From Oasisia sp. SBJ-2009 (Eukaryota > Annelida > Polychaeta > Sabellida > Siboglinidae): DNA of 64,000 nt. A model generated the notes under the pieces. It worked only from the letters and a program-made list of their open reading frames with translations, searched no databases and had not been told where the DNA came from. Numbering within the stretch: the first letter of the stretch is position 1; each line of letters opens with the position of its first letter. The DNA is taken from NCBI GenBank assembly GCA_964017155.1, contig OZ024865.1, forward strand, positions 18,498,951-18,562,950, in the 5' to 3' direction. The position numbers were made by a program, and so were the translations under genes. This document shows positions 1,159 through 57,407 of the stretch, piece after piece.

Positions 1159-1243
1159 ATGACGGCATCACTGGCCAGACCTTGGTTTCTCTTGGTGCGA
1201 GTCTGTGTCATCTCCAGTCTGTGTCTTCTACTCACACAACAAG
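1159..1243 (+). CDS. Gene A exon 1: signal peptide
   Basis: The ATG at 1159 opens a 28-codon frame with a basic start (MTASLARPWF) and a hydrophobic core (LLVRVCVISSLCLLL), ending at QQ plus one base (phase 1). The donor AACAAG|GTGAGT is close to consensus. Joined to exon 2 it gives a secretory leader followed at once by the lectin domain, which decided this start. The last 46 bases of the exon are almost identical to the 47-bp tandem unit that fills the start of intron 1. Confidence 0.75.
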
Positions 1244-2993
1244 GTGAGTCTGTGTCATCTCTAGTCTGTGTCTTCTACTTACACAACAAGGTGAGTCTGT
1301 GTCATCTCTAGTCTGTGTCTTCTACTCACACAAGGTGAGTCTGTGTCATCTCCAGTCTGTGTCTTCTACTCACACAACAAGGTGAGTCTGTGTCATCTCT
1401 AGTCTGTGTCTTCTACTCACACAACAAGGTGAGTCTGTGTCATCTCCAGTCTGTGTCTTCTACTCACACAACAAGGTGAGTCTGTGTCATCTCCAGTCTG
1501 TGTCTTCTACTCACACAACAAGGTGAGTCTGTGTCATCTCTAGTCTGTGTCTTCTACTTACACAACAAGGTGAGTCTGTGTCATCTCTAGTCTGTGTCTT
1601 CTACTCACACAACAAGGTGAGTCTGTGTCATCTCTAGTCTGTGTCTTCTACTCACACAACAAGGTGAGTCTGTGTCATCTCCAGTCTGTGTCTTCTACTC
1701 ACACAACAAGGTGAGTCTGTGTCATCTCTAGTCTGTGTCTTCTACTCACACAACAAGGTGAGTCTGTGTCATCTCCAGTCTGTGTCTTCTACTCACACAA
1801 CAAGGTGAGTCTGTGTCATCTCCAGTCTGTGTCTTCTACTCACACAACAAGGTGAGTCTGTGTCATCTCTAGTCTGTGTCTTCTACTTACACAACAAGGT
1901 GAGTCTGTGTCATCTCTAGTCTGTGTCTTCTACTCACACAACAAGGTGAGTCTGTGTCATCTCTAGTCTGTGTCTTCTACTCACACAACAAGGTGAGTCT
2001 GTGTCATCTCCAGTCTGTGTCTTCTACTCACACAACAAGGTGAGTCTGTGTCATCTCCAGTCTGTGTCTTCTACTCACACAACAAGGTGAGTCTGTGTCA
2101 TCTCCAGTCTGTGTCTTCTACTCACACAACAAGGTGAGTCTGTGTCATCTCTAGTCTGTGTCTTCTACTCACACAACAAGGTGAGTCTGTGTCATCTCCA
2201 GTCTGTGTCTTCTACTCACACAACAAGGTGAGTCTGTGTCATCTCCAGTCTGTGTCTTCTACTCACACAACAAGGTGAGTCTGTGTCATCTCTAGTCTGT
2301 GTCTTCTACTTACACAACAAGGTGAGTCTGTGTCATCTCTAGTCTGTGTCTTCTACTCACACAACAAGGTGAGTCTGTGTCATCTCTAGTCTGTGTCTTC
2401 TACTCACACAACAAGGTGAGTCTGTGTCATCTCCAGTCTGTGTCTTCTACTCACACAACAAGGTGAGTCTGTGTCATCTCCAGTCTGTGTCTTCTACTCA
2501 CACAACAAGGTGAGTCTGTGTCATCTCCAGTCTGTGTCTTCTACTCACACAACAAGGTGAGTCTGTGTCATCTCTAGTCTGTGTCTTCTACTCACACAAC
2601 AAGGTGAGTCTGTGTCATCTCCAGTCTGTGTCTTCTACTCACACAACAAGGTGAGTCTGTGTCATCTCCAGTCTGTGTCTTCTACTCACACAACAAGGTG
2701 AGTCTGTGTCATCTCCAGTCTGTGTCTTCTACTCACACAACAAGGTGAGTCTGTGTCATCTCCAGTCTGTGTCTTCTACTCACACAACAAGGTGAGTCTG
2801 TGTCATCTCTAGTCTGTGTCTTCTACTCACACAACAAGGTGAGTATGTGTCATCTCCAGTCTGTGTCTTCTACTCACACAACAAGGTGAGTCTGTGTCAT
2901 CTCTAGTCTGTGTCTTCTACTCACACAACAAGGTGAGTCTGTGTCATCTCTAGTCTGTGTCTTCTACTCACACAACAAGGTGAGTCTGTGTCA
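1244..2993. repeat. 47-bp minisatellite copying the exon 1 donor junction (left part)
   Basis: About 37 tandem units start exactly at the exon 1 donor: GTGAGTCTGTGTCATCTCCA, then GTCTGTGTCTTCTACTCAC, then ACAACAAG. The unit differs from the last part of exon 1 mainly at one base (exon GCGAGT, unit GTGAGT). Each unit thus ends in CAACAAG and is followed by GTGAGT, recreating a near-consensus 5' splice site. Units vary at TCTCCAG/TCTCTAG and CTCAC/CTTAC, and one is 4 bp short near 1330. The array resumes at 7220 beyond an inserted CR1 element. It is not a CRISPR array, because there are no unique spacers. Confidence 0.95.
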
Positions 2994-3104
2994 GTTGTGT
3001 ATAACATAAAGTGAGCTGCAGTTACTGTCCACATAAAACAGTCTTTCTAAAGACTAAATTGGTATACCGACTGAGTAAATTTTGAGTACCTGGGTAGTCA
3101 TAAT

Positions 3105-4250
3105 ATGGCCCCTTGCAAGCGGCAAGTGAAGGCAAGGAGGCACCTAGTGTGTGACTATTGTCACAGCTTTGTAGATTTTGCTCTATCCGGATGCACAAAG
3201 TCATGGGCTGAGACAATGGAGGAAGACTTTACTTTCCAGTGCACAGGGTGTTTGAAAGTGGAATGTCTTACAGCAGAGTTAGCTAGGCTAACCGATATTG
3301 TGAAGGGGATGGAGATGAGAATAACCAAAGAGACAGATGGAAGAGGTCGGAAGGAACAATGCAGTGACAAGAAGGGTGAGGACAGTATACTGAGAGGAGG
3401 GAGGGCGAGTGCAAGGAAAACAAATGGAGAAAGAACAAGTGAAAACATGGCATGCAGGAAGGTGACAGGGGAGAAAGTGACAGTAGATGAGGGGGTGACA
3501 ATGGGACAGGAGATGATAGAAGCAGATGCGACAGGAGGAAAGACGAAGGGAAGAAAGGAACTGAGAGTAGATGTGACCAAACGGAAGTCAATAACAAGGA
3601 TGGTGTCAGGAAGAAAAGAGGCAGGAAAGAAAGGAACAGAGAAAGCGGCAGGGGGAAAAGTCAGCAACCAGGGAGATGCAAAACGGAGGAGTTACTCTGA
3701 AGCAGTGATTGAGGGGGCATTGAGAACAGAAAGGGTGTTTATGGGCGACTCAATTTTGCGAAAGACGGACAAGACGTTAAGTAAAGGAGAAGATGTTGTT
3801 GTTTGTCTTCCAGGCGCTCGGATAGAGCATGTGACAGATAGGGTAGAGAACGCGTTGGGGCATGGCCAGGGAGGATCTATATTAGTACATGTAGGGACGA
3901 ACAATGCAGACAGGGAGGGGACAACTAGAATAGTGCAAAGATACAGACAGTTGGTAGGGAAACTGAAGAAGACAAGAGTTGAACAGATCATTCTCTCAGG
4001 AATCTTGCCAGTAATCGGAGGAAGGGGAGCAACCTATAGAAACTGCAAGAGGATGGCAATCAATGCTCTGGTGGAGCAGATGTGTGAGGAGGAAGGGGTT
4101 GGATTCTTGAATTTGTGGGGGCGCTTTGTTGGGAAGGAGGACATGTACGTGAGAGATGGCCTCCATCTAAGCGGAAAGGGCGCAGCAGTTTTCTCTGAGA
4201 ACCTGCTTCAATCTATGGACAGTGGAACAGGTTGCAATTATTTAAACTAG
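3105..4250 (+). CDS. CR1 ORF1: zinc-finger plus SGNH-esterase protein
   Basis: 381 residues. Residues 16-50 hold a PHD-like cysteine set (CDYC at 16-19, then C30, then CTGC). A short leucine-rich helix follows (ECLTAELARLTDIVKGMEMR), then a long Lys/Arg-rich linker. The C-terminal half is an SGNH-hydrolase-type esterase: GDSIL near 214, GTNN near 265, DGLHLS near 351. ORF1 proteins with PHD and esterase domains are known from CR1 elements and are thought to act in RNP assembly. The frame is intact. It ends at TAG 4248-4250, and the same frame continues into ORF2 with no upstream ATG. Confidence 0.85.
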   Translation: MAPCKRQVKARRHLVCDYCHSFVDFALSGCTKSWAETMEEDFTFQCTGCLKVECLTAELARLTDIVKGMEMRITKETDGRGRKEQCSDKKGEDSILRGGRASARKTNGERTSENMACRKVTGEKVTVDEGVTMGQEMIEADATGGKTKGRKELRVDVTKRKSITRMVSGRKEAGKKGTEKAAGGKVSNQGDAKRRSYSEAVIEGALRTERVFMGDSILRKTDKTLSKGEDVVVCLPGARIEHVTDRVENALGHGQGGSILVHVGTNNADREGTTRIVQRYRQLVGKLKKTRVEQIILSGILPVIGGRGATYRNCKRMAINALVEQMCEEEGVGFLNLWGRFVGKEDMYVRDGLHLSGKGAAVFSENLLQSMDSGTGCNYLN

Positions 4251-7121
4251 ATTCGCAGGGGGGATTCAAATACTGGAGGCACAGATAAGGACAGCACAGA
4301 TAAAACGGCAAAGAACAGTCTGGAAAACTCTACAACATTTGGTTATAAATGTGCATGTTTAAATGCAAGGAGCATAGTAAACAAAAGAAATGAACTAAAC
4401 ATTATGGTAGAAGATAATGACCCTCACATAATAGGTATAACTGAATCTTGGGCCACCCCCGATATATCAGATGCCGAATTAGGAATGACAGGATATGTCA
4501 TGTTTAGGAAAGATAGAATAGGGAGAAGGGGAGGTGGCGTTATTTTATATATTAAAGAATCCATTCAGGTTTACGAAATAAAATTAGAAAAACAAGCAGA
4601 ATGTGAAGAAGCTGTGTGGTGTAACATAGTTACAGGAAACTCAACATTAACTGTTGGGTTAGTTTATCGAAGTCCAAACATAAGCACAGATGAGAATGAG
4701 AAAATACAAAACGCTATAAAGGAAGTCAGTAAACGGCAGTGTATAATTATGGGGGATTTTAACCATGGGCGTATACAGTGGAAATCTCAACAGAGTACTG
4801 GGAGTGAAGATCAAACATTTTTTTATTTAGTACAAGACAGTTTCCTTACTCAACATGTGTTAGAACCAACCAGGGGTGAGAACGTATTGGACATAGATAG
4901 TTTTGAGCTCACAGAAGGAATTTATTGATAATGTAAGGATATGTGAGACACTGAGGTGTAGTGATCACAACCAGATATATTTTATCATCAAAGTAAAAGG
5001 AGAACAGAATCGTAAAATACGGTACAGGAACATTTTTCACAAAGGAAGATATAAGGACATGAGGAAATATTTAGCAAAGATAGACTGGAATAACACACTG
5101 GAGAGTAAGACAGCAACAGAATGTTGGAATATCTTAAAGAGAGAAATTGACTGCATTGTCGAACAATTTGTCCCCTTGAAAAAACAGGGGAAACGGTCAA
5201 AAAAGAAACACTTATCAAAAGAAGCCATTAGAAAAATCAAATACAAGCAAACGATGTGGAAGACATATAGACTTACTGGAAGTGAAGAAGACTTTGCCAT
5301 TTATAAAGAAGCACTTAATCAAGCTACAGCTGAAATTAGAAATTCAAAGAGAAGCTATGAACAAAAATTAGCTTTTAATAAAAAACATGACAGCAAGAGT
5401 TTTTATGCGTATGTTCGAAGTAAACAGAAAGTTCAAGATAAGGTAGGACCTCTAGAAGGTAGTGATGGAAACATAATAACAGAGGGATTCTTAATGGCAG
5501 AAAGCCTAAATGAATACTTTAGTTTGGTGTTCACCAGGGAAGATACTAGTGCATTACCAGTACCAGAGACTAAATTTGAAGGGAGAGAGCCAGACTATTT
5601 AGGACAACTAATTGTAACACCAAAAATGGTAGCTAAGAAAATAAGGGATATGAAGGAAAATAAGTCACCTGGAGTGGATGGGATTCCTCCCAAATTACTA
5701 CTGGAAATTGTAGAACAAATCAGCATACCACTTGCAACAGTGTTCAATTTGTCAATAGAGGAAGGAGTAGTTCCATTAGAATGGAAAGAAGCAAACATCA
5801 TACCATTATTTTAAAAAGGATCAAGAAGCAAGTCAGAGAACTATAGACCAGTTAGTTTAACATCAGTGGTTTGCAAACTATTAGAAAGACTAATTAAAGA
5901 TCACTTGGTTGATTTTCTTGTTAAAAATAACTTGATTAACCCATCTCAAAATGGGTTTCTAAAAGCGAGGTCATGCTAACAAATATCTTATGTTTTTTGG
6001 AAGATGTCACAAAGTGGGTAGACGAGGGATCACCAGTAGATATAATATACTTAGATTTAAAAAAAGCCTTTGACAAAGTGCCACATCAAAGATTACTACT
6101 TAAACTAAAGGCCCATGGCATAGGCAATGGTATGATTAACTGGATAGAAAAATGGCTCATTGATAGAAGACAAAGAGTGGTAGTTGATGGGGAGGTTTCA
6201 AACTGGAAATCGGTTTTGAGTGGAGTACTGCAGGGATCAGTATTGGGACCTATTTTGTTCTTAATATATATCAATGATTTGGATGATGATATAACAAGCA
6301 AGGTGTTGAAGTTTGCGGACGATACAAAAGTGTTTAGAAAAATTGAAAGTGATGCATATAGAAAGCAATTACAAGATGATCTAAATAAGTTGAACGAATG
6401 GTCTGATAAGTGGCAAATGCTGTTTAATTATGGGAAGTGTAAGTGCCTCCACACAGGACATGGAAATGAAGATGCACAATATACAATGGGTGATACTGTA
6501 CTAAATACTACCGTAAAGGAAAAGGACTTAAGGTTAACTATTAGTGCTGATATGAAGGTATCAGAACAGTGTGCAATTGCAGCAGCAAAGAGAAACCAAA
6601 TTCTTGGATTAATTAGGCGAAATATAGTGTACAAGGAAAAAGAACTAATAATACCGCTGTACAAAACAATAATTAGGCCTCATTTAGAATATTGCATACA
6701 GGCATGGAGGCCATATCGCAAGAAGGATATTGATATACTAGAAAGAGTACAAAGAAGAGCAACCAAAATGATACAAAAACTCAGGAATATTAGTTATGAA
6801 ATGCGTCTAAAAGAATGTGGATTAACAACACTAGAAACCAGGAGATTGAGAGGAGATCAGATAGAAGTTTTTAAAATATTGAATGGGTATGAAAATATTG
6901 ACAGAAATATTTTTTTCTCTGTTAAGGAAGAGAGAAGGACTAGAGGACATGGAATTACATTAGCAAAGAAGCAGTGTAGACTAGATATTAGAATTTTTTT
7001 ATTTTCACAAAGAACAGTAAATGAATGGAACAGATTATCGGCTGATTGTGTAGGTGCTAGTAGTGTTAATATGTTTAAAAATAAAATTGACATGTACCTA
7101 AGAAGGGCTGGGTACATTTAG
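4251..7121 (+). pseudogene. CR1 ORF2: endonuclease/reverse transcriptase, broken
   Basis: The N-terminal apurinic-type endonuclease is visible: CLNARSIVNKRNEL, then IGITESW, GGGVILYIK, GLVYRSP, MGDFNHG. The RT follows: SPGVDGIPPKLL, FKKAFDKVPHQRL in the homologous copy, LIYINDL, FADDTKVF. The first in-frame ATG (4404) lies downstream of the conserved LNARS block, so it is unlikely to be the original start. Lesions: reading passes from one frame to another near 4895-4905; codon 5812-5814 is TAA where copy 2 has AAA; a T is missing near 5973. GVLQGSV stands where copy 2 has GVPQGSV. The copy cannot make a full protein. Confidence 0.88.
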
Positions 7122-7219
7122 TTAGATAGGTTGGACTCTTGATAAGCCAAAGGGCTTCCTTGTCCACCTGCCATCTAGAGTTGATTCTCTGGGTGGCAAT
7201 CTTGTTAAATCTTGTTAAA

Positions 7220-7445
7220 TCTCCAGTCTGTGTCTTCTACTCACACAACAAGGTGAGTCTGTGTCATCTCCAGTCTGTGTCTTCTACTCACACAACAAGG
7301 TGAGTCTGTGTCATCACCAGTCTGTGTCTTCTACTCACACAACAAGGTGAGTCTGTGTCATCTCCAGTCTGTGTCTTCTAATCACACAACAAGGTGAGTC
7401 TGTGTCATCTCCAGTCTGTGTCATCTAATCACACAAGGTGAGTCG
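7220..7445. repeat. 47-bp minisatellite, right part
   Basis: About 4.7 further units of the array at 1244-2993, resuming in register after the CR1 insertion. The last units degrade (TCATCTAATCAC) and end at GTGAGTCGGTGG. Confidence 0.93.
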
Positions 7446-7599: not shown

Positions 7600-7654
7600 A
7601 GAAAATGATATCACACACCTATGTGTGTGTATGTGACTGCACATATATACACAT

Positions 7655-13486: not shown

Positions 13487-13699
13487 GGATGTCCGATACG
13501 AATATTGCACTAGGAAAGTTGGCCTTGATGAGTTCCCTGTGGAGAAAACAGGCTAGTTTACTGGCTACTAGGGGCAATGACGGGAATTACTCGTCAAACT
13601 TCCATACAGCACGTGGTAACAAGGCCTGGTGGGCGGTGGACCTTGGGCAGGGGGATGACCAGATCAGTAGAGTTAAAATCACCAACATAGAGGAGCGCA
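13487..13699 (+). CDS. Gene A exon 2: F-type lectin-like domain, first half
   Basis: Acceptor TTCTGTTGTAG|GG; joins exon 1 in phase 1. It encodes NIALGKLALMSS, then GNDGNYSSNFHTARGN, then AWWAVDLGQ and ISRVKITNIEER. These are the conserved blocks of FTP/F-type lectin domains: NxALGKxAxxSS, a DGN turn, H...WWxVDLG, and the VxITN strand. I place the donor at CGCA|GTAAAC (after 13699) because that phase-1 end joins exon 3 to give EERNRLLNFTVGLTD, which fits the RLNxFxVxVG family block. Reading on past the donor meets a stop within four codons. Confidence 0.8.
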
Positions 13700-13737
13700 G
13701 TAAACTAAGTGTCTAAAGGTTGTATGGAGAGAGGAGC

Positions 13738-13875
13738 AAGGTTTGATAAAGAGAGACGATGCAGACACGCAGGCACGCAGGCACACACACTCACACAATA
13801 CACACACACAACACAACACAACAAACACCACACTCGCACACACGCACCCTGTCTCTCACACACACACACAATATT
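13738..13875. repeat. CA-rich microsatellite
   Basis: Interrupted (CA)n in intron 2 of gene A. The rest of that intron up to 14086 holds nothing recognisable. Confidence 0.8.
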
Positions 13876-14086
13876 AGAGTGGCCAATTTTTACATGGTGA
13901 GAAAATAATTTTTGAAATCAACAACGAATACGGGCTAAAAGGATTAGGTTGGGTGAGAAAACAACTATGTAAACATTTCAGCGAAATCCATTGAGAGGAA
14001 CCGACCTCTCAATGGACCCAAAGTTCATTGCATAGTGATACATATAAGAACTTGTCCATTTGAGAGTGACATGTGGTCCACAGTGA

Positions 14087-14463
14087 ACCTATACATGTTC
14101 TACAACCTATACATGTTCTACAACCTATACATGTTCTACAACCTATACATGTTCTACAACCTATACATGTTCTACAACCTATACATGTTCTACAACCTAT
14201 ACATGTTCTACAACCTATACATGTTCTACAACCTATACATGTTCTACAACCTATACATGTTCTACAACCTATACATGTTCTACAACCTATACATGTTCTA
14301 CAACCTATACATGTTCTACAACCTATACATGTTCTACAACCTATACATGTTCTACAACCTATACATGTTCTACAACATATACATGTTCTACAACCTATAC
14401 ATGTTCTACAACCTATACATGTTCTACAACCTATACATGTTCTACAACCTATACATGTTCTAC
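14087..14463. repeat. 18-bp minisatellite (AACCTATACATGTTCTAC)n
   Basis: About 21 near-perfect copies; one unit has AACATA in place of AACCTA. Because 18 is a multiple of three, two frames stay open across it, but they are repeat artefacts. Intron 2 of gene A. Confidence 0.95.
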
Positions 14464-14764
14464 CCTAGGAACGTCTTTGGTTGATTTGTACTCATCAGGT
14501 CCTAAAACTAATTCAGCCTGACAGCTCAACCAAACGCAATTTTGAGTAACTCTGGTAATTTGCATAAATCCAAGATGACCAAAGGTCAGGTTTTAGAAAA
14601 TCCTTTAGGACGAATTGTCTTAGAATTAATGTCTATTTTTTGGGGTATTTGGGTATGTATAATCCATTTTCAGTTCAGAAATTGTTACACAGTTGTTTTT
14701 TCTATCAACCTAATCTTTTTAGCCTGTATGCATTGTTGATTTCTAAAATAATTTTTTGACCACC

Positions 14765-14935
14765 CTAATATACCTAATAATATATATATATATAATACCC
14801 TAATTTATATATATATATATATATATATAATACCCTAATATATATATATATTACATATATAACATATGTATATATATAATATACATATATACATATATAT
14901 ATATACATACACACACTATACATTTACATTAGTAA
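14765..14935. repeat. (TA)n microsatellite cluster
   Basis: Several TA runs separated by TACCCTAAT spacers. The following sequence to 15383 is AT-rich intron with nothing recognised. Confidence 0.8.
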
Positions 14936-15383
14936 TAAATTATTTTATACTGATGCCAGGTAGTTTCCATGGGTATAACATGTTCACAAGCTTTTATAAT
15001 ACAACATTGTTAAACCACAATAGTTACTATACAAGAATGCTTTTACATATACAAAATGCATTAATAACAAGAGTATTATAAAAAATTACTGGATATGTGG
15101 AAACATGAAACCATGCCATGTGAGACATGTAAGCCATTTCAATCATCCTAATTTATTTTATATAAAATAGTGTATCTTTCTTAGTTATGATTAACACTGA
15201 TTGAACTGTGCGAAACATATTTTTGCTATCCTAATTACCCCAGTAACTTACGTGCAACAATTCTGCCTCGGATATAAAGTATTTAACTTACTTGGATGAC
15301 TACATGTCAAGTCTTAAAGATCACCTCCTGTTGTCAGATGTAATTCTGTACAGATAGATGATCATTATGTCGGTACCTTACAG

Positions 15384-15608
15384 ACAGACTACTCAACTTC
15401 ACGGTTGGTCTGACGGATACAACCCCGACTAGAGGCAGAGGACCACTGCACTCTTCATTCGTGACATGCGCCACTCACGGCCCCATGGGAGATGTGCGCA
15501 CTGTCACCCTCACGTGCAAGAACTCAAGCAAGGTACAAAGACGCTACTTGTTCGTGGCAGCAAATGTTGATCACCACTTTCATTTGTCGGAGGTGGAAGT
15601 CTTCATCG
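15384..15608 (+). CDS. Gene A exon 3: F-type lectin-like domain, second half
   Basis: Acceptor CCTTACAG|ACAGAC; donor TTCATCG|GTGAGT (strong). It encodes RLLNFTVGLTDTTP, SFVTCATHGPMGD, VTLTCKNSS, RRYLFVAANVDHHF and LSEVEVFI. This matches the C-terminal half of FTP domains (RLxxFxVxVG, C, G, then RYVxVxxxxxxLxLxEVEVF). It ends in phase 1. A cysteine pair (TCATHG and LTCKNS) could form the domain's usual disulfide. Confidence 0.82.
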
Positions 15609-16878
15609 GTGAGTATATTGCCTCAACACACCGTATTGGAATTATTGATGCTAATCCTAGTGGGTTTTCATACAAACACACGTAGACCATACCTACATCC
15701 CCCTGGTGCAGGAATCCCAATCAGTATAACCAAGCTAAATTTGTTATGACGATCTGTCTGTGGCTTAGTAGGTCTACTGGTCATATCGTTCATCTTACAT
15801 TGTCTGTCGTTTGGAAGAGACACTTATGATCCGTATGTTGGTTTTCCCTATCTGGTGTCTATGGCAGGGGTGTGTAATCACATGTAGGGCTGTCAAATAT
15901 TTTCGTTGATTCTCTGAGTTGGGTTCATGTCGTACTAATGCCAGATTAATCAATTAAATAATTATGAGCATTTACTGGGAGACGAAATAGAAATCACACA
16001 CGCGCGTACGCACGCACGCAGACACACATTCCACACACAACACACACATATACACAATATACACAGACACACATATACAGTTATACACATACACCATACA
16101 CACAGACACACATACGCACATGCATATACAACACACAGCTTCTTAATGTCTCTAATAGAGTAAACTACCATCTTGATAACAATCAATCATACCCAGTAAA
16201 GACCCTCGGGTGAATTTTTAAATTACGAAACATTCTACAGTAATTTACTTGTAAGACCCAAGCTACGAGGCACCAAGCAAGAGTGACAGTCAATAAATCT
16301 AGGGCTTGAAGGATCCTTTGCTGGGTGTTTGTCAATGACAGCCATGCAGTCCAAAAGGTGACTGGGCATTTGTTTAATTTGTCTAAATCCTACATGGCCG
16401 CCATCATATTACGGTTTTTGTCATATTCCTCATGTGATTCTAAGTAAACGTTTAGTTTGTGAAACTGCTATAATGCCATAGTTGAAGGAGTTTGTTGTTT
16501 ACCTGAATAAATCCAATATGGTCACTTTCTTAGTGTTATGAAATACTACCCACAATCTAGAAGTGATGCACTGAATTAAACAAATTTCATTATCTTATCT
16601 GTATGATTACCTGATAAATACAATAATGCTGCTAATTACAGCAGAACAATTAAAGTCAAAGGATCCAAAATGATCCAGTTGTCAAGTGAAATTAATTGAA
16701 TCTAGTGATGTCACATCTTGAAGACAAACATTTGCAATTATATAGTTTGTTGCCCTAAATATGATGAGTCAGAAGCCTCCTACCATAAACAGTACTCCTA
16801 CTTCCCAATATGCCAGCTTGCCTAACACTGAAAGATAAACTGTTGAAGTGCAAAATACAATTACGCAACATGTTGCAG
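15609..16878. other. Gene A intron 3
   Basis: AT-rich intron with a CA/TG microsatellite at about 15995-16140. No further gene or mobile element was recognised. A second usable acceptor (GTTGAAG|TG at 16848/16849) lies in frame and would lengthen exon 4 by 10 codons. Confidence 0.6.
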
Positions 16879-17279
16879 ACATCGACCCGAGTTTGATCAA
16901 AGTGACCGGGTATCGAACCGACTACAACGTGACTGCCATGGTTGATGTGAACAACGCCACCTGCCAGCCCGTGACAACTCCGCAATCCGACAAGTCGTTC
17001 CGTCTAGAGGTCGAGTTGCTGACTCGCCCCGACAGCCTCACTCTGACCGTGGTGCTGGCCGGGGGGGAATGTCTTGACTTCCCGGCCACGATGGTGTACA
17101 CGGAGCGTGACAACTCAGTCATGCTCCCATACCACAACAACCCTGATTTCTGCGACAATGAGCCAGGGAAATGTGTGTTCAAGTGCGACTGCAGCGACAC
17201 CAAATGTCATCGTTTGGTTCTCATCATCCTCAGTGCCCCCACAGGGCCGCGCGGGTTGTGTGAAATATTCATTGATTAG
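16879..17279 (+). CDS. Gene A exon 4: unrecognised C-terminal region and stop
   Basis: Chosen acceptor ACATGTTGCAG|AC keeps phase 1 and gives FIDIDPSLIKVTGY across the junction. About 133 residues follow to TAG 17277-17279. Visible features: NVTAMVDVNNATC with two N-glycosylation sequons, an alternating hydrophobic stretch (LTLTVVLAGGECLDFPA), and a cysteine cluster (DFCDNEPGKCVFKCDCSDTK). I recognise no family. GC content is higher than in the flanking introns, as expected for coding sequence. Acidic Cys-rich spacing hints at a metal-binding or disulfide-rich fold, but that is speculation. Confidence 0.75.
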
Positions 17280-18488: not shown

Positions 18489-18810
18489 CAGTTCTTATAT
18501 AGCGCAGTATCCAGTCCTCAGGACCGTTCAAAGCGCTTTACACTTTACTTCCCTGACAGACCTGTTCACTCAGACACCATCTCGGCTTCTCTGGGAAGCA
18601 TCCAGCCATATGCTACAATTAATGCGCGAAGGCTGCTCGTACACATATCCACCACTGTCTATAGTCAGGTACTCATTTAAACAGCTGAGTGAACTGGAGC
18701 AATGTAGAGTGAAAAAACTTGCCCAAGGTTTTAACACCGCAGCCAGGATTCGAACCCGGGTTCTCGTAGTCGAGAGTCTGAAGCTCTACCCCTGAGCCAC
18801 TGCGCTCTAC
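18489..18810 (-). mobile_element. tRNA-derived SINE, copy 2 (best preserved)
   Basis: On the minus strand the head has intact box A (GTGGCTCAGGGGTAGAGC) and box B (GGGTTCGAATCC). The body is shared with the other copies, and the tail ends TACTGCGCTATATAAGAAC. The tRNA part is followed by over 200 unrelated bases, so this is a SINE and not a tRNA gene. It is in sense orientation relative to gene B. Confidence 0.88.
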
Positions 18811-25380: not shown

Positions 25381-25530
25381 CTGTGCAGTTCTTGCTGTCC
25401 TCTGCGAGTCTGTAGCCAGGGTCACAGTCACACACGTAGCCCGGCTGGACACTGACAAACCCTGGCACCTTGTTGATGCAACGTTGGGCACAGTCATGTA
25501 GTGGGTGGGCCTTGTCACACTCATTCACAT
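25381..25530 (-). CDS. Gene B exon 30: calcium-binding EGF with GC donor
   Basis: Acceptor TTGTTGTCTAG|AT, phase 1. Encodes DVNECDKAHPLHDC, AQRCINKVPGFVS, VCDCDPGYRLAEDSKNC. The donor is CACAG|GCAAGT: GC replaces GT but the rest matches the donor consensus, as in known GC-AG introns. It is longer than its neighbours (150 against 126 bp), with an insertion between C4 and C5. Its first 39 bases and the acceptor are the source of the 53-bp array at 25531-27226. Confidence 0.85.
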
Positions 25531-27226
25531 CTAGACAACAACAAAGTCATGTAGTAGGTGGGCCTTGTCACACTCATTCACATCTAGACAACAACAAAGT
25601 CATGTAGTGGGTGGGCCTTAATTGTCACACTCATTCCCGTCTAGGCAACAACAAAGTCATGTAGTGGGTGGGCCTTAATTGTCACTCATTCCCGTCTAGG
25701 CAACAACAAAGTCATGTAGTGGGTGGGCCTTAATTGTCACACTCATTCACGTCTAGGCAACAACAAAGTCATGTAGTGGGTGGGCCTTGTCACACTCATT
25801 CACATCTAGACAACAACAAAGTCATGTAGTGGGTGGGCCTTGTCACACTCATTCACATCTAGACAACAACAAAGTCATGTAGTGGGTGGGCCTTGTCACA
25901 CTCATTCACATCTAGACAACAACAAAGTCATGTAGTGGGTGGGCCTTGTCACACTCATTCACATCTAGACAACAACAAAGTCATGTAGTGGGTGGGCCTT
26001 AATTGTCACACTCATTCGCGTCTAGACAACAACAAAGTCATGTAGTGGGTGGGCCTTAATTGTCACTCATTCACATCTAGACAACAACAAAGTCATGTAG
26101 TGTGTGGGCCTTGTCACACTCATTCACATCTAGACAACAACAAAGTCATGTAGTGGGTGGGCCTTGTCACACTCATTCACATCTAGACAACAACAAAGTC
26201 ATGTAGTGGGTGGGCCTTGTCACACTCATTCACATCTAGACAACAACAAAGTAATGTAGTGGGTGGGCCTTGTCACACTCATTCACATCTAGACAACAAC
26301 AAAGACATGTAGTGGGTGGGCCTTGTCACACTCATTCACATCTAGACAACAACAAAGTCATGTAGTGGGTGGGCCTTGTCACACTCATTCACATCTAGAC
26401 AACAACAAAGTCATGTAGTGGGTGGGCCTTGTCACACTCATTCACATCTAGACAACAACAAAGTCATGTAGTGGGTGGGCCTTAATTGTCACACTCATTC
26501 ACGTCTAGGCAACAACAAAGTCATGTAGTGGGTGGGCCTTGTCACACTCATTCACATCTAGACAACAACAAAGTCATGTAGTGGGTGGGCCTTGTCACAC
26601 TCATTCACATCTAGACAACAACAAAGTCATGTAGTGGGTGGGCCTTAATTGTCACACTCATTCACGTCTAGGCAACAACAAAGTCATGTAGTGGGTGGGC
26701 CTTAATTGTCACACTCATTCCCGTCTAGGCAACAACAAAGTCATGTAGTGGGTGGGCCTTAATTGTCACTCATTCCCGTCTAGGCAACAACAAAGTCATG
26801 TAGTGGGTGGGCCTTGTCACACTCATTCACATCTAGACAACAACAAAGTCATGTAGTGGGTGGGCCTTGTCACACTCATTCACGTCTAGGCAACAACAAA
26901 GTCATGTAGTGGGTGGGCCTTGTCACACTCATTCACGTCTAAACAACAACAAAGTCATGTAGTGGGTGGGCCTTGTCACACTCATTCACATCTAGGCAAC
27001 AACAAAGTCATGTAGTGGGTGGGCCTTGTCACACTCATTCATGTCTAGGCAACAACAAAGTCATGCAATGGGTGGGCCTTGTCACACTCATTCACATCTA
27101 GACAACAACAAAGTCATGCAATGGGTGGGCCTTGTCACACTCATTCACATCTAGACAACAACAAAGTCATGTAGTGGGTGGGCCTTGTCACACTCATTCA
27201 CATCTAGACAACAACAAAGTCATGTA
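25531..27226. repeat. 53-bp minisatellite copying the exon 30 acceptor junction
   Basis: About 32 units lie directly upstream (in gene B sense) of exon 30. On the minus strand each unit is the first 39 bases of the exon (ATGTGAATGAGTGTGACAAG, GCCCACCCACTACATGACT) plus TTGTTGTTGTCTAG, that is, the intron end with its AG. Variants carry an extra AATT (CCTTAATTGTCAC), CCCGTC or CACGTC for CACATC, and GGCAAC. In the standard unit, use of any decoy acceptor except the last reads into TAG after 17 codons. Confidence 0.95.
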
Positions 27227-27309
27227 GAGGGTTCATCTTTAATAAACAACATCACATGTCAGATAAGTTCTTGTAAAGCACAATACCCAGGACTGCTTGA
27301 AACACCACT

Positions 27310-32942: not shown

Positions 32943-32964
32943 CTAGAATATAGACAGTGATTTG

Positions 32965-33366
32965 GCTCTGCTGTAACAGTTGGTGTTACAGTGACAGTGG
33001 TGTGACTCTGTTGTGGCAGTTGGTGTTACAGTGACGTGACTCTGTTGTGGCAGTTGGTGTTACAGTGACAGTGACGTGACTCTGTTGTGGCAGTTGGTGT
33101 TACAGTGACAGTGGTGTGACTCTGTTGTGGCAGTTGGTGTTACAGTGACAGTGACGTGACTCTGTTGTGGCAGTTGGTGTTACAGTGACAGTGGTGTGAC
33201 TCTGTTGTGACAGTTGGTGTTCAAGTGACAGTGGTGTGACTCTGTTGTGGCAGTTGGTGTTACAGTGACAGTGACGTGACTCTGTTGTGGCAGTTGGTGT
33301 TACAGTGACAGTGACGTGACTCTGTTGTGGCAGTTGGTGTTCAAGTGACAGTGGTGTGACTCTGTT
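32965..33366. repeat. GTTGTGGCAGTTGGTGTTACAGTGACAGTG minisatellite
   Basis: About 10 units of 36-42 bp (TGACTCTGTTGTGGCAGTTG, GTGTTACAGTGACAGTG) abutting the acceptor of exon 26 and running directly into the next array at 33367. Confidence 0.92.
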
Positions 33367-33910
33367 GTGACAGTTGACACAGCTATGACAGTTTACACAG
33401 CTGTGGCAGTTGACACTGATGTGACAGTTGACACAGCCGTGACAGTTGACACAGCTGTGACAGTTGACACTGCTGTGACAGTTGACACAGCTATGACAGT
33501 TGACACAGCTGTGGCAGTTGACACTGATGTGACAGTTGACACAGCCGTGACAGTTGACACAGCTGTGACAGTTGACACTGCTGTGACAGTTGACGCAGCT
33601 GTGACAGTTGACACTGCTGGGAGAGTCGACACAGCTGTGACAGTCGACACTACTGTGACAGTTGACACAGCTGTGACAGTTGACACTGCAGTGACAGTTG
33701 ACACAGCTGTGACAGTTGACACTGCTGTGACAGTGGACACTGCTGTGACAGTTGACACTGCTGTGACAGTTGACACTGCTGTGACAGTTGACACAGCTGT
33801 GACAATTGACACAGCTGTGACAGTTGACACAGCTGTGACAATTGACACTGTTGTGACAGTTGACACTGCTGTGACAGTTGACACAGCTGTGACAGTTGAC
33901 ACTGTTGTTG
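33367..33910. repeat. 18-bp minisatellite (GACAGTTGACACAGCTGT)n
   Basis: About 30 units. The right end is 3 bp from the donor dinucleotide of exon 25. Together with the array at 32965 it makes the whole 970-bp intron 25 tandem DNA. Frames are open on both strands because 18 is a multiple of three; the Thr/Val/Ser peptides are artefacts. Confidence 0.94.
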
Positions 33911-34744: not shown

Positions 34745-35450
34745 ACTGAATGTGTGACACGTTTGAATGGACCCTTTGGTGTATACGACAAAAGCCATGA
34801 CACAAGTAGCTTTCAGTGACACTTATGACACGGGAAGCTTTTGTTGACAGCGATGACACAATGAGTAGCTTTCAGTGACACTTATGACACAGGAAGTTTT
34901 TGTTGACACTGGACGTTTTTGTTGACAGTGATGACATAATGAGTAGCATTCAGTGACACTTAAGACCATGGGAAGCTGTTATTGATAATGGTAACACAAT
35001 GAGTAGTTTTCAGTGACATGACACAGGAAACCTTTGTTGACTGTAATGACACAATGACTTGACATTGGAAGTATTTGTTAACAGTGGTGACACTGTGAAT
35101 GGCTTTCAGTGACACTTATGACATGGGTAGCTTTTGTTGGCAGTGATGACACACTGAGCAGCTTTCAGTGACATTTGACACTGGTATTACTTTTGTTGAC
35201 AATGACGACATGAGTAGCTTTCATTGACACTTATGACATGGGTGGCTTTTGTTGGCACTGTTGACACTGTGCATAGCTTTCAGTGACACTTGTGTTACGG
35301 GTAGCTTTTATTGACAGTGATGACACAGTGAGCAGCTTTCAGTGACACTTGTCTTATGTGTAGCTTTTGTTGATAGTGATGACACAATGAGTAGCTTTCA
35401 GTGACACTTGTAACATATACCTTTTTTGATGACACAATAAGTTGCAATGA
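34745..35450. repeat. Degenerate (GTAGCTTTCAGTGACACTTATGACAC)n minisatellite
   Basis: About 20 diverged units combining GTAGCTTT(C/T)(A/G)TTGACA, GTGATGACACAATGA and CAGTGACACTTATGACA. The higher divergence suggests an older array. Intron 23 of gene B; the rest to 35835 has no feature. Confidence 0.85.
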
Positions 35451-40204: not shown

Positions 40205-40750
40205 GCTGGATCTTCACACAAAAGTGGCATGTGATAGGATCTTCACACAAAAGTGGCATGTGATAGGATCTTCACACAACAGTGGCATGTGATAGGATCT
40301 TCACACAACAGTGGCATATGATAGGATCTTCACACAACAGTGGCATATGATAGAAACTTCACACAACAGTGGCATATGATAGGATCTTCACACAACAGTG
40401 GCATATGTTATGATCTTCACACAACAATGACATGTGATGTGATATTTACGCAACAGTGGCATGTGATAGAATCTTTACAAAACAATGGCATATGATGTGA
40501 TCTTCACACAACAGTGGCATGTGATAGAATCTTTACAAAACAATGGCATGTGATGTGATCTTCACACAACAGTGGCATGTGATAGGATCTTCACACAACA
40601 GTGGCATATGATAGAATCTTCCCACTACAGTAGCATGTGATGTGATCTTCACACAACAGTGGCATATGATAGGATCTTCACACAACAGTGGCATATGATA
40701 GAATCTTCAGACAACAGTGGCATATGATAGGATCTTCACACAACAGAGAC
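40205..40750. repeat. 29-bp minisatellite (GATCTTCACACAACAGTGGCATRTGATAG)n
   Basis: About 19 units with many point variants fill intron 20. The donor-proximal intron start (minus GTATGTGAACAT, then CCTATCTAACATATGTC, then TCTGTT) resembles the unit GTGTGAAGATCCTATCATATGCCACTGTT, so the array may derive from the region just after the exon 20 donor. Confidence 0.9.
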
Positions 40751-40789
40751 ATATGTTAGATAGGATGTTCATATAAAATGTTCACATAC

Positions 40790-44729: not shown

Positions 44730-44886
44730 TTAACCCGGTGCACACTTAGGAATGTTCCCGTGCCACCATTGTCTGTGTAACGCACCCACACACCCAGACT
44801 CACGGACGACACATCCACATGAAATGTGTGCAGTGATTACGTGCCACCCCGGCCGTCAAACTCTATGTCCAGGTCTCTGTCTGTGT
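44730..44886 (-). CDS. Gene B exon 16: pentraxin/LamG-like fold, first part, with in-frame stop
   Basis: Acceptor TGTGGCTGTAG|AC, donor GGTTAA|GTAAGT, phase 1 to 2. Encodes [16 protein letters not shown], then TAA (44837-44839), then [34 protein letters not shown]. Both sides of the stop lie in one frame and both look like pentraxin-type sequence. The nearest alternative, removing a 42-base piece, is too short for an intron. This may be a nonsense allele, sequencing error, stop readthrough or recoding. Because the phases are unequal, skipping this exon would break the frame. Confidence 0.72.
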
Positions 44887-45950: not shown

Positions 45951-45997
45951 CGTGTAACATGTCAGTTTTTAAACATTACAATAACAACATATTGGCA

Positions 45998-46325
45998 TTG
46001 TAGCACAGTGGTGTAGTGTAGTAGTGCTATGTCCAGATCTTGACACTCTTAACTCATAAGGAGACCCAAGGTTCAAATACAAGGTGTGATGTTGAAACTT
46101 GGGCGAGTTCATTTACTCTACATTGCTCCAGTTCACTAAGCTGTGTAAACAAGTACCTGGCTACACACTGTGGTGGATATTTGTATATGAGTATTGTTCA
46201 CGCATTAAATGCTGCATGGTTAGATGCTTCCCAGAGAAGTTGAGATGGTGTTCGATTGAACAGGTCTGCCACAGTGTTTGGGCAAACCTGAGGATTGGAT
46301 ACTGAGGTATCTATATAAAAAGTTA
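45998..46325 (+). mobile_element. tRNA-derived SINE, copy 4
   Basis: Head GTAGCACAGTGGTGTAGTGT, degenerate box B (AAGGTTCAAATAC), body with GTACCTGGCTACACACTGTG, GATGCTTCCCAGAGAAGTTG and AGATGGTGTTCGATTGAAC, and tail TATCTATATAAAAAG. Intron 15 of gene B, antisense to it. Confidence 0.8.
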
Positions 46326-52636: not shown

Positions 52637-52680
<44 letters not shown>

Positions 52681-53088: not shown

Positions 53089-55514
53089 CTGCAAGGACAC
53101 AAGTTATCTCAAAATACCATGAAGACTACGCATGGTTTCGGATATCGTATGTGCTCAGGGATGTTACCTCAATGGTGATGATGCCATACTTTGAGGTAGA
53201 GAATACTAAGGGATGTTACCTCAATGGTGATGATGCCATACTTTGAGGTAGAGAATAGAGAATATTCAGGGATGTTACCTCAATGGTGATGATGCCATAC
53301 TTTGAGGTAGAGAATAGAGAATGCTCAGGGATGTTACTTCAATGGTGATGATGCCATACTTTGAGGTAGAGAATAGAGAATATTCAGGGATGTTACCTCA
53401 ATGGTGATGATGCCATACTTTGAGGTAGAGAATAGAGAATGCTCAGGGATGTTACTTCAATGGTGATGATGCCATACTTTGAGGTAGAGAATAGAGAATA
53501 TTCAGGGATGTTACCTCAATGGTGATGATGCCATACTTTGAGGTAGAGAATAGAGAATGCTCAGGGATGTTACTTCAATGGTGATGATGCCATACTTTGA
53601 GGTAGAGAATAGAGAATATTCAGGGATGTTACCTCAATGGTGATGATGCCATACTTTGAGGTAGAGAATAGAGAATATTCAGGGATGTTACCTCAATGGT
53701 GATGATGCCATACGTTGAGGTAGAGAATAGAGAATGCTCAGGGATGTTACCTCAATGGTGATGATGCCATACTTTGAGGTAGAGAATAGAGAATATTCAG
53801 GGATGTTACCTCAATGGTGATGATGCCATACGTTGAGGTAGAGAATAGAGAATGCTCAGGGATGTTACCTCAATGGTGATGATGCCATACTTTGAGGTAG
53901 AGAATAGAGAATATTCAGGGATGTTACCTCAATGGTGATGATGCCATACTTTGAGGTAGAGAATATAGAATATTCAGGGATGTTACCTCAATGGTGATGA
54001 TGCCATACTTTGAGGTAGAGAATAGAGAATATTCAGGGATGTTACCTCAATGGTGATGATGCCATACTTTGAGGTAGAGAATAGAGAATGCTCAGGGATG
54101 TTACCTCAATGGTGATGATGCCATACTTTGAGGTAGAGAATAGAGAATATTCAGGGATGTTACCTCAATGGTGATGATGCCATACTTTGAGGTAGAGAAT
54201 AGAGAATGCTCAGGGATGTTACTTCTATAGTGATGATGTCATACTTTGAGGTAGAGAATAGAGAATGCTCAGGGATGTTACTTCTATAGTGATGATGTCA
54301 TACTTTGAGGTAGAGAATACTAAGGGATGTTACCTCAATGGTGATCATGCTATACTTTGAGGTAGAGAATAGAGAATATTCAGGGATGTTACCTCAATGG
54401 TGATCATGCTATACTTTGAGGTAGAGAATAGAGAATACTCAGGGATGTTACCTCAATGGTGATGATGCCTAACGTTGAGGTAGAGAATAGAGAATGTTCA
54501 GGGATGTTACCTCAATGGTGATGATGCCATACTTTGAGGTAGAGAATACTAAGGGATGTTACCTCAATGGTGATGATGCCATATTTTGAGGTAGAGAATA
54601 GAGAATGCTCAGGGATGTTACCTCAATGGTGACGATGCCATATTTTGAGGTAGAGAATAGAGAGAGAATACTCAGGGATGTTACCTCAATGGTGATGATG
54701 CCATATTTTGAGGTAGAGAATAGACAATGCTCAGGGATGTTACCTCAATGGTGATGCCGTCATATTTTGAGGTAGAGAATAGACAATGCTCAGGGATATT
54801 ACCTCAATGGTGATGCTGTCATATTTTGAGGTAGAGAATAGAGAATGCTCAGGGATGTTACCTCAATGGTGATGCTGTCATATTTTGAGGTAGAGAATAG
54901 AGAATGCTCAGGGATATTACCTCAATGGTGATGATGCCATATTTTGAGGTAGAGAATAGAGAATGCTCAGGGATATTACCTCAATGGTGATGCTGTCATA
55001 TTTTGAGGTAGAGAATAGACAATGCTCAGGGATATTACCTCAATGGTGATGATGCCATATTTTGAGGTAGATAATAGAGAATGCTCAGGGATGTTACCTC
55101 AATGGTGATGCTGTCATATTTTGAGGTAGAGAATAGAGAATGCTCAGGGATGTTACCTCAATGGTGATGATGCCATATTTTGAGGTAGAGAATAGAGAAT
55201 GCTCAGGGATGTTACCTCAATGGTGATGATGCCATATTTTGAGGTAGAGAATAGAGAATGCTCAGGGATGTTACCTCAATGGTGATGATGCCATACTTTG
55301 AGGTAGAGAATAGAGAATGCTCAGGGATGTTACCTCAATAGTGATGATGCCATATTTTGAGGTAGAGAATAGAGAATGCTCAGGGATGTTACCTCAATGG
55401 TGATGCTGTCATATTTTGAGGTAGAGAATAGAGAATGCTCAGGGGTGTTGCCTCAATGGTGATGACGCCATACTTTGAGGTAGAGAATAGAGAATGCTCA
55501 GGGATGTTACCTCA

Positions 55515-56646
55515 GTGGTGATTAGGGATGGGACGATTAATCGCGATTCACGGTATTCGCGGTTTTAAGGCTCACGGTTCGGTGCACCGTCGTCAGTTTG
55601 CGTACCGCATTTTTTTTCGATTTTGATAAATGGCACATCGTCATCGCCTAATCGGTGTTTCCGTACATGGCGAACATGGCCACCACTAAGAAACTTGTGT
55701 ACGATTACAGTTTAGAAACTTAGGCTAAGTATTAGGTTAGTTTAGGATAAAACCGGAATCCAGATTTAGCGACACCGCGATAAAATATCGACGCCACGGT
55801 AATCTACGCCTTCAGCCTTCGCGTAACTGTAAGTCGTAACAGTCGCCGGCGATGTCGACTTTAGTTTAGCAAGATTTTGTTTTGTAAATATTATTCGTCA
55901 CAGCAATTTAAATGATTTAATTTTATGACCTAGCGTATTTATATGTAATATGAGTTATTAGAGAGGAAGTTTCGTGGCTGTAGGAGGTCGTTTTCATGAT
56001 TAGATCAGAAAGTAAAAGATTGTTTTGCGGCACTGGAAAGAAAAACAAAATGGCGACCGCGGTGTGATTACCCAGATGCCGTGAGGTGGCAGCACTTTTT
56101 AGCCCCTCAGACCGAATTTGAAATAAATTAACTGAGAATAGTATTTATATCAAATATTATTAAAAAAAAAAAATTAAAAATGAGGATACTCTTTATCAGA
56201 TATTATAAAAAAAAACGATTCAAAAGTAAACTTATAATGAAACGTCTCACACATAAAATAAACAGAATAATTTTTGTTTAAATAATTGTTATGTTGTCTC
56301 ATTTATTATTTTCTCCTTATTATTTTGTGTATTTTACTACTTAGTGGTTGTAAGCGACCCCTAGTGTTGATGTTAGTCGTTGTAAGCGCCCCCTAGTGTT
56401 GAATGTTGCAAACCCCTCTAGAGAGACCACGTACCCCTCTTTTAAGACCGCCCCACTCTGATCTGGGGGGGGGGGCGGTCTTAAATGAGGGGTTCCACTG
56501 TACTGCATTAAAAAAAATTCATTAAAAAATGTGTGTGATAGGTGGCGTGGTTGTGAAAAGTATCGTGAATATATTGAACCGTGGGTCAAATATCGAAAAT
56601 CGAACCGAAAATTTTAAATATGTATCGTCCCATCCCTAATGGTGAT
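55515..56646. mobile_element. hAT-like DNA transposon, non-autonomous, in the 59-bp array
   Basis: 1116-bp element (55523-56638) with terminal inverted repeats TAGGGATGGGACGAT and ATCGTCCCATCCCTA. The flanks GTGGTGAT (55515-55522) and ATGGTGAT (56639-56646) match at seven of eight positions, and the array consensus is ATGGTGAT. This is the 8-bp target duplication expected of hAT. No transposase frame. It contains a partial copy of the GTGGCAGCAC repeat (56068-56270) and a run of G near 56465. Confidence 0.85.
56068..56270. repeat. Dispersed repeat with GTGGCAGCAC core, copy 2
   Basis: GTGATTACCCAGATGCCGTG, AGGTGGCAGCACTTTTTAGC, CCCTCAGACCGAATTTGAAA, then AT-rich sequence with AAACTTATAATGAAACGTCT. 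It parallels 58255-58520 but has lost the central GTAGAGACGCTGATTGG part. Nested in the hAT-like element. Confidence 0.65.
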
Positions 56647-57255
56647 GATGCCATACTTTGAGTTAGATAATAGAGAATGCTCAGGGATGTTACTTCAATA
56701 GTGATGATGTCATACTTTGAGGTAGAGAATAGAGAATGCTCAGGGATGTTACCTCAATGGTGATGATGCCATACTTTGAGGTAGAGAATAGAGAATGCTC
56801 AGGGATGTTACCTCAATGGTGATGATGCCATACTTTGAGGTAGAGAATAGAGAATGCTCAGGGATGTTACCTCAATGGTGATGATGCCATACTTTGAGGT
56901 AGAGAATGCTCAGGGATGTTACTTCAATAGTGATGATGTCATACTTTGAGGTAGAGAATGCTCAGGGATGTTACCTCAATGGTGATGATGCCATACTTTG
57001 AGGTAGAGAATAGAGAATGCTCAGGGATGTTACCTCAATGGTGATGATGCCATACTTTGAGATAGAGAATGCTCAGGGATGTTACCTCAATGGTGATGAT
57101 GCCATACTTTGAGATAGAGAATGCTCAGGGATGTTACCTCAATGGTGATGATGCCATACTTTGAGGTAGAGAATAGAGAATGCTCAGGGATGTTACTTCA
57201 ATAGTGATGATGCCATACTTTGAGGTAGAGAACATAGAATGCTCAAGGATATTAC

Positions 57256-57407
57256 CTCAATGGTGATGATGCTGTACTTGGGGGCAGAGATAATCCAGGC
57301 CAGTTTGTTGTGGCTGAAGTATTTCAGTGGGTAGAAGGGAGAAGTGACGTACGAGAGCTCTGTGCTGGCTTGGAACGATCCACAAGCCCCAGAAATTGTT
57401 TGTTCTC
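57256..57407 (-). CDS. Gene B exon 8: CUB 2, first half
   Basis: Acceptor CATGTTTTAG|GA, donor ATTGAG|GTAATA, phase 1 to 0. Encodes EQTISGACGSFQASTELSYV, TSPFYPLKYFSHNKLAWII, SAPKYSIITIE. CUB pattern CGxx...TSPxYPxxYxxxxxxxWxI. Its 3' end seeded the 59-bp array. Confidence 0.9.

What the first reader, a model, noticed from the sequence alone, without database searches (positions are those of the whole stretch)
1159..57407. Minisatellites built from splice junctions recur in two neighbouring genes
Seen: in four introns of two genes on opposite strands, the tandem unit reproduces or closely resembles the adjoining exon-intron boundary. These are gene A exon 1 donor (47 bp, about 41 copies), gene B exon 8 donor (59 bp, about 50), exon 5 donor (33 bp, about 28; also in the window though right of this span) and exon 30 acceptor (53 bp, about 32). 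Other arrays start 1-45 bp from donors (exons 27, 25, 20) or near acceptors (exons 26, 22). Arrays seeded at random in introns would not be expected to include exon bases and functional splice sites so often. Inference: a process targeted to splice sites (for example R-loop or replication slippage at the exon edge), or selection on the result. I know of no named system of this type.
Basis: partly seen in the sequence, partly recalled or inferred. Interest (0 to 1): 0.82.

Follow-up and report, generated by a model that had tools for sequence, protein, structure and literature searches.

The report
Splice-junction minisatellites in a tubeworm genome
In this deep-sea tubeworm genome, some repeat arrays inside introns are made of dozens of copies of a gene's own exon-intron junction, a pattern known before from amphioxus under the name mirages, which raises the question of how the cell picks the right splice site and why these arrays form there.

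Summary
The window is from a vestimentiferan tubeworm (annelid): a fucolectin-like gene (+) and a large CLECT/CUB/EGF gene (-). Three of the four named arrays do consist of copies of an exon-intron junction, with 35-45 exon bases: gene A exon 1 donor, gene B exon 8 donor, exon 30 acceptor. The fourth (exon 5) starts at the donor but repeats essentially no exon. Reading frames support the junctions; predicted Ridgeia and Lamellibrachia proteins support those of gene B. The phenomenon has a name, 'mirages', from amphioxus. It is not confined to this window: of 11 arrays elsewhere carrying the donor word AGGTRAGT, 8 start at an apparent exon donor and 6 repeat 13-35 exon bases (ABCB6, laminin beta and FTHFDH confirmed by homology). 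Of 25 arrays not picked for that word, 3 touch a verified splice site (6 with probable ones); about 0.4-1.2 expected. A preference for junctions is likely but rests on small samples, and under a strict null the window shows no excess. R-loops fit poorly; selection on copies is not detected. Best reading: duplications with arbitrary breakpoints across the junction, expanded and homogenised, tolerated because the exon-proximal site is used. Splicing is untested.

The parts
1159..1243 (+). Gene A exon 1 (signal-peptide-like start), donor AAG|GTGAGT at 1244
1199..2993 (+). 47-bp array, first block; first unit is exon 1 itself, 45 exon bases per unit
2994..7218 (+). Non-LTR retrotransposon inserted in the 47-bp array (endonuclease and reverse transcriptase ORFs, AATCTTGTTA tail)
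7219..7436 (+). 47-bp array, second block beyond the insert
13487..17279 (+). Gene A exons 2-4 (13487-13699, 15384-15608, 16879-17279), fucolectin-like domain and C-terminal part
25381..25530 (-). Gene B exon 30 (EGF_CA, DVNECDK...), acceptor ends at 25531
25492..27232 (-). 53-bp array at the exon 30 acceptor; unit = 14-15 intron + 38-39 exon bases
57256..57407 (-). Gene B exon 8 (first half of second CUB domain), donor GAG|GTAATA
56638..57290 (-). 59-bp array at the exon 8 donor, exon-side block; 35 exon bases per unit
55523..56637 (.). Insert with terminal inverted repeats splitting the 59-bp array
   Evidence: read by eye
53197..55522 (-). 59-bp array, second block
60576..60709 (-). Gene B exon 5 (first half of first CUB domain), donor ACT|GTAAGT
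59640..60576 (-). 33-bp array starting at the exon 5 donor; repeats GTAAGT in every full unit but essentially no exon
29337..31532 (-). 21/22-bp array starting 4 nt after the exon 27 donor (phase not matched to the next recognised exon, so this boundary is less certain)
32953..33902 (-). 40-bp and 18-bp arrays filling most of one intron, 10 nt from its acceptor and 11 nt from its donor
40208..40759 (-). 29-bp array 30 nt after a donor and 60 nt before the acceptor
34797..35416 (-). 28/59-bp array ending 74 nt before an acceptor

Best explanation
These are mirages: intronic minisatellites founded by a tandem duplication whose two breakpoints fell on either side of an exon-intron junction, then expanded and homogenised by slippage or unequal exchange inside the array. 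Shown: unit sequence equals the local junction, each array has its own unit, breakpoints fall at varied distances from the junction, unit variants recur in blocks, and the same arrangement occurs at exons of other genes in this genome. Inferred: the spliceosome keeps using the exon-proximal copy, so the duplication is tolerated. Also inferred, and weaker: junctions are founded more often than other intron positions, for a reason not yet known. The arrangement is the one described in amphioxus; here it occurs in an annelid.
For: Three junctions of 70 in the window are repeated in the adjoining array, with 35-45 exon bases. The consensus units of the arrays differ from each other and the three match their own exon, which argues against a dispersed element. 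Gene A exon 1 is identical to the array consensus and unit variants recur in blocks. Elsewhere: 11 distinct arrays with AGGTRAGT in tandem in the first 100 listed rows, covering the first 16.7 Mb of contig C1; 8 of 11 start at an apparent exon donor, 6 with 13-35 exon bases in the unit; three of those six exons are confirmed by homology (ABCB6, laminin IV type B, 10-formyl-THF dehydrogenase). The exon-like share of the unit does not differ from uniform (KS P 0.78, 10 donor arrays, exon 5 left out), which fits arbitrary breakpoints. Exon parts of exon 30 array copies carry 4-base insertions that would break the frame, so those copies are not under coding constraint.
Against: No RNA evidence that the exon-proximal site is used. 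Under the stricter null the window alone shows no excess of exon overlap (4 against 3.56). Splice junctions lie in repeats less often (3 of 70) than random intron points (14-22 of 70 in six draws), although a junction can only lie at an array edge. The backward-motif control has a similar number of arrays (8, in 10 places, against 11) and of copies (6297 against 7169), so the donor word as such is not strikingly over-represented among arrays. Three of the six exon-bearing arrays elsewhere (L031, L034, L036) and both with 3-9 exon bases (L032, L039) have no database confirmation of the exon beyond a weak match for L039.
Confidence: 0.75

Rival explanations
1. Ordinary minisatellites seeded uniformly in introns. 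Some touch a junction by chance, and short ancestral introns force arrays to lie near both ends; no preference exists.
For: Exon overlap 4 of 14 against 2.0-3.6 expected; for three arrays the intron outside the array span is only 73, 90 and 154 nt. The finding was chosen because it looked striking.
Against: Overlap of 30 nt or more 3 of 14 against 0.54-0.79; donor edges within 30 nt 6 of 14 against 1.93. In 12 arrays of a sample not chosen for motifs, 2 verified contacts plus 1 ambiguous against 0.2-0.6 expected (P 0.02-0.11 for 2).
Confidence: 0.3
2. Splice junctions are preferred birth sites because of a mutational process tied to transcription or splicing (R-loops, pausing, breaks).
For: Donor-side excess in the window; 8 of 11 donor-word arrays start at apparent exon donors, though that set was picked for a donor word.
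Against: Coding strand is C-rich or neutral in the named arrays; only 2 of 16 array blocks are strongly G-rich on it. Breakpoints are spread rather than fixed at the junction. Arrays at acceptors exist too (exon 30; L013, L027).
Confidence: 0.25
3. Repeated junctions are kept by selection because many identical splice sites help splicing or buffer mutation.
For: GT or AG is almost invariant among 152 full units: 1 distinct variant in the four dinucleotides.
Against: 2.9 expected by chance, P 0.19; 124 of 192 unit columns are invariant anyway (39 of 47, 24 of 59, 27 of 33, 34 of 53).
Confidence: 0.1
4. The arrays made the introns: exon duplication followed by splicing between copies (intron gain by tandem duplication).
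For: Proposed for amphioxus globins on similar structures (PMC3087553).
Against: The introns after exons 5 and 8 lie at about the same place, same phase, in two CUB domains (two residues apart in the alignment; the third CUB intron lies elsewhere), yet their repeat units are unrelated, so these introns look older than the arrays.
Confidence: 0.05

Closest known systems
Mirages of amphioxus (Adh3, troponin C, globins BflGb6 and BflGb9, PGBD5)
   Same: [quoted passage not shown] unit 10-72 bp in Adh3 (passages of PMC3087553 and PMC3902484).
   Different: Annelid instead of cephalochordate; about 30-50 copies here against 6 and 3 units in the two BflGb6 haplotypes. Several loci are known in amphioxus too, so occurrence in several genes is not a difference.
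Intron gain by tandem duplication (Rogers model, named in a passage of PMC3087553; a potato case, PMC4974935, seen in the search listing only)
   Same: Tandem duplication involving splice signals.
   Different: Here two of the introns appear to predate their arrays; no new intron was shown.
Intronic minisatellites of earthworm metallothionein intron 1 (passages of PMC12783039)
   Same: Annelid, minisatellite arrays in an intron.
   Different: The passages read do not report that the units contain the splice junction.
C. elegans CeRep25B intronic minisatellite (passages of PMC4039745)
   Same: Minisatellite over-represented near alternative splicing regions.
   Different: One dispersed family with regulatory motifs, not copies of the local junction.

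Membership tests
Mirages | Tandem unit spans an exon-intron boundary and contains exon bases | tested here: met
   3 of the 4 named junctions; not met for exon 5
Mirages | Either boundary (donor or acceptor) can be involved | tested here: met
   Donors of gene A exon 1 and gene B exon 8; acceptor of exon 30
Mirages | Copies carry AG/GT splice signals | tested here: met
   Splice dinucleotide retained in nearly all of 152 full units
Mirages | mRNA is spliced normally despite the copies | not testable with these tools
   No RNA; open frames and relatives' predicted proteins are only indirect
Mirages | Length instability between alleles or tissues | not testable with these tools
   One assembly only; recurring blocks of unit variants show past turnover
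Intron gain by tandem duplication | Intron absent from close relatives | tested here: inconclusive
   Only predicted proteins of relatives, no gene structures; paralogous CUB introns argue against
R-loop-driven repeats | G-rich coding strand across the array | tested here: not met
   Skew -0.39 to +0.05 in the four named arrays

The most novel reading that the evidence does not exclude
Splice junctions are hot spots for the birth of minisatellites in siboglinid annelids, so that something like an eighth to a quarter of all minisatellites are anchored at an exon edge, a trait that arose independently of amphioxus or is old and overlooked in bilaterians.
Probability: 0.4. Interest if true: 0.75.

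Novelty: new member of a known kind. Interest (0 to 1): 0.58.

Why it matters
The papers on mirages that I opened concern amphioxus, and one of them calls the phenomenon possibly more general in cephalochordates (passage of PMC3087553). Finding it at eight loci sampled in an annelid genome (two genes of the window and L029, L031, L034, L035, L036, L040) says the process is broader. Each array is also a natural experiment on splice-site choice: about 40 donors with the same GTGAGT follow gene A exon 1, so the old question whether proximity, order of synthesis or exon context decides can be read from long-read RNA without making a construct. A chromosome-scale assembly of this kind also lets the birth rate of minisatellites at junctions be measured directly.

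Tried and rejected
Amphioxus as source: my first guess from the literature; rejected when gene B matched Ridgeia piscesae and gene A and the EGF part matched Lamellibrachia satsuma best.

A mobile or satellite origin of the units: rejected because the arrays in the window have different consensus units and the three true mirages match their own exon. I did not search the genome for the units as DNA.

Selection on splice dinucleotides: no significant signal. R-loops: skew has the wrong sign or is neutral in the named arrays.

Counting the donor word in arrays genome-wide: copy counts (7169 against 6297 backwards) and array counts (11 against 8) do not separate the word from its control; only the position of the arrays relative to exons is informative. 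The backward control word is not neutral: TGAGTGGA can contain or adjoin GTGAGT, and L048, L052 and L054 do carry GTGAGT. A rough per-word comparison using 8 AGGTRAGT words in 186 kb and 2 of 35 AG|GTRAGT donors in the window pointed to a several-fold excess at donors, but rests on such small numbers that I do not use it.

Not counted as mirages among the 11 donor-word arrays: L030 (roughly 80 nt downstream of a possible exon), L033/L041 (no exon seen) and L037 (no exon seen, 5' edge unclear).

Sample not chosen for motifs: 20 stretches of 10 kb at round coordinates, 186,120 readable bases. I examined 12 arrays: the 11 plus L015. Two further small arrays (L023:87-199 and L023:8477-8536) I did not examine. 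Exons at array edges were recognised by eye and then, for some, by Pfam or PDB search; exons not conserved enough to recognise are missed.

Backward-word set: in L043, L045, L046 and L054 an array edge runs to the end of the fetched stretch and L053 is flanked by withheld bases; they stay in the denominator of 13 and can only lower the count.

Planned and never answered: family PF00431, and patterns AGGTAAGT alone, TTTTCAGG (acceptor side) and ACACTGTC (neutral word) in the genome search.
Full report
What the window is. Proteins assembled from the window match predicted proteins of vestimentiferan tubeworms best: gene B (CLECT to CUB part) is 400 of 481 aligned positions identical (83%, 32 gap positions counted) to a predicted Ridgeia piscesae protein, the EGF part 74% to Lamellibrachia satsuma, gene A 64% to L. 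satsuma. The window lies at C12:18498951-18562950 of a 764-Mb assembly in 33 contigs. Gene A (+) has four exons and gives 307 residues plus a stop, with an N-terminal signal peptide by eye and a fucolectin-like domain (F5_F8_type_C_2 just under its cut-off; one relative, P0007, is named fucolectin). Gene B (-) carries a C-type lectin domain, three CUB, PAN (just under its cut-off), EGF, laminin G-like, HYR, ephrin-receptor-like and EGF_CA domains. It may not be intact: one exon has an in-frame stop and one lacks an AG acceptor (see noticed items).

The observation. Tandem Repeats Finder confirms the arrays. A 32-base window across each of 70 splice sites has a close second copy nearby at three: gene A exon 1 donor, gene B exon 8 donor, exon 30 acceptor. 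Their units hold 45, 35 and 39 exon bases. The exon 5 array begins at the donor and repeats GTAAGT, but only 1 exon base ungapped. Gene A exon 1 is identical to the array consensus and unit variants recur in blocks, so the array grew by copying blocks of units. At exon 8 the authentic copy differs from the consensus at six positions of one unit, two of them in the exon; exon 30 matches its consensus through the repeated part.

Chance in the window. With each of 14 arrays slid within its own intron, exon overlap is 4 against 2.04 expected (P 0.11), or 3.56 if all arrays are first removed (P 0.50). For overlap of at least 10, 20 and 30 nt it is 3 each time, against 1.51, 0.95 and 0.54 (P 0.17, 0.04, 0.005) or 2.52, 1.42 and 0.79 (P 0.48, 0.14, 0.024). 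Edges within 10 nt of a splice site are 6 against 2.68 (P 0.016). Donor-side edges within 30 nt are 6 against 1.93 (P 0.003), acceptor-side edges 2 against 1.93 (P 0.62). Repeats hold 3 of 70 splice sites and 14-22 of 70 random intron points. The thresholds were chosen after looking, in a window flagged for this feature, so the window alone is suggestive only.

The rest of the genome. The pattern AGGTRAGT three times with gaps of 10-40 bases gives 7169 matches; the same word backwards 6297. The first 100 listed rows form 11 arrays within the first 16.7 Mb of contig C1; the backward word gives 8 arrays (10 places) in the same stretch. I fetched a stretch at the 5' side of all 11. Eight start at the end of an open frame that finishes at a donor; six of these repeat 13-35 exon bases (L029 23, L031 28, L034 20, L035 26, L036 35, L040 13), and two repeat 9 and 3 (L032, L039). 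Three of the six exons are identified by homology: ABCB6 to its last residue, laminin IV type B (57 of 64 residues), 10-formyltetrahydrofolate dehydrogenase (E 0.0019). L031, L032 and L034 found nothing in Pfam or the PDB; L036 found nothing in Pfam and was not tried in the PDB; L039 is only weakly like a beta-propeller. For these the exon rests on open frame and splice signals. The listed donor-word matches read GTGAGT, none GTAAGT; I could not follow this up.

Arrays not chosen for the donor word. In 20 stretches at round coordinates (186 kb readable) I examined 12 arrays. L013 ends within 1 nt of the acceptor of a zf-4CXXC_R1 exon; L027:4607-5732 ends 10 nt before the first base of a PDZ exon; L026 abuts a RING-finger exon but its 27-base unit could itself be coding, so it is ambiguous; L015 ends 58 nt before an ALKBH6 exon; I recognised no exon at the other eight. 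Of 13 backward-word arrays (8), L044 starts at the donor of an adenylate/guanylate cyclase exon, L048 and L051 are probable contacts by eye, and ten show none or were not fully captured. So 3 of 25 are verified and 6 of 25 with ambiguous and probable ones, against about 0.4-1.2 expected for assumed intron shares of 0.32-0.47 and pre-array introns of 800-1500 nt (P 0.009-0.11 for 3; below 0.001 for 6).

How it works. Shown: unit equals local junction; different units at different junctions; exon-like share of the unit indistinguishable from uniform (10 donor arrays, exon 5 left out); block-wise growth; copies that would break the reading frame. Inferred: a tandem duplication with arbitrary breakpoints across the junction, tolerated because the exon-proximal site is used, followed by slippage or unequal exchange. 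Two arrays are older than the transposable elements that interrupt them. Why junctions might be favoured is open: strand composition does not fit R-loops and selection on the copies is not detected.

Relation to what is known. PMC3087553 (passages read) reports tandem repeats spanning exon-intron boundaries in amphioxus globins and, citing others, Adh3; the name 'mirages'; somatic instability at Adh3; regular splicing as far as RT-PCR suggests; and an intron-gain model. PMC3902484 (one passage) adds troponin C and PGBD5. The original Adh3 paper I could not find under the DOI I tried; what I know of it beyond these passages is recall. For tubeworms and annelids I saw lists only: 10 of 7,875 hits, 12 of 117, 10 of 12; no title or abstract start there reports junction-spanning arrays, and of these papers I opened passages of PMC9921365, PMC12783039, PMC4039745 and PMC3087553. 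The earthworm paper describes minisatellites in metallothionein intron 1; its passages do not say that they contain the junction. One ascidian paper (PMC7710358) holds the word 'mirages' once and was not opened. I therefore make no firm claim of a first report outside cephalochordates.

Noticed in passing
window 44837-44839 (-): In-frame TAA in the laminin G-like/pentraxin-like exon 44730-44886 of gene B; assembly error, variant or decay not distinguished.
   Followed up: no
window about 61069-61158 (-): LDL-receptor-like exon present in the Ridgeia relative has CG instead of AG before it here (by eye); skipping it keeps the frame.
   Followed up: partly
window 2994-7218 and 20870-23041 (+): Two retrotransposon copies with reverse transcriptase ORFs and the same AATCTTGTTA tail repeat; the first interrupts the 47-bp array.
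   Followed up: partly
window 55523-56637: Element with inverted ends (TTAGGGATGGGACGAT) and a possible short target duplication interrupts the 59-bp array; hAT-like by recall.
   Followed up: no
window 36493-38148 (+): Further reverse-transcriptase ORF in an intron of gene B (RVT_1).
   Followed up: no
window 7911-13091 (+): 5-kb purine-rich array in gene A intron 1, coding-strand GC skew 0.98.
   Followed up: no
window 59640-60576 (-): The 33-bp unit is open in the exon 5 frame by eye, so use of a later donor would add 11 residues per unit.
   Followed up: no
window 25380 (-): Exon 30 ends at a GC donor (GCAAGT).
   Followed up: no
window 25492-25530 (-): The exon 30 part shared with the array encodes two residues more (KAHPLHDC) than the Lamellibrachia satsuma protein (KGNHNC); whether the array changed the exon is open.
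   Followed up: no
window about 360-600, 18500-18810, 36000-36230, 45990-46300: Dispersed SINE-like repeat, by eye (reads ..CACCATCTC..CTTCTCTGGGAAGCATCCAGCC..).
   Followed up: no
genome: The 11 donor-word arrays listed carry GTGAGT and none GTAAGT, although GTAAGT is the commoner donor in the window (10 against 5 of 35); single AGGTGAGT and AGGTAAGT words in the sample are 5 and 3.
   Followed up: partly
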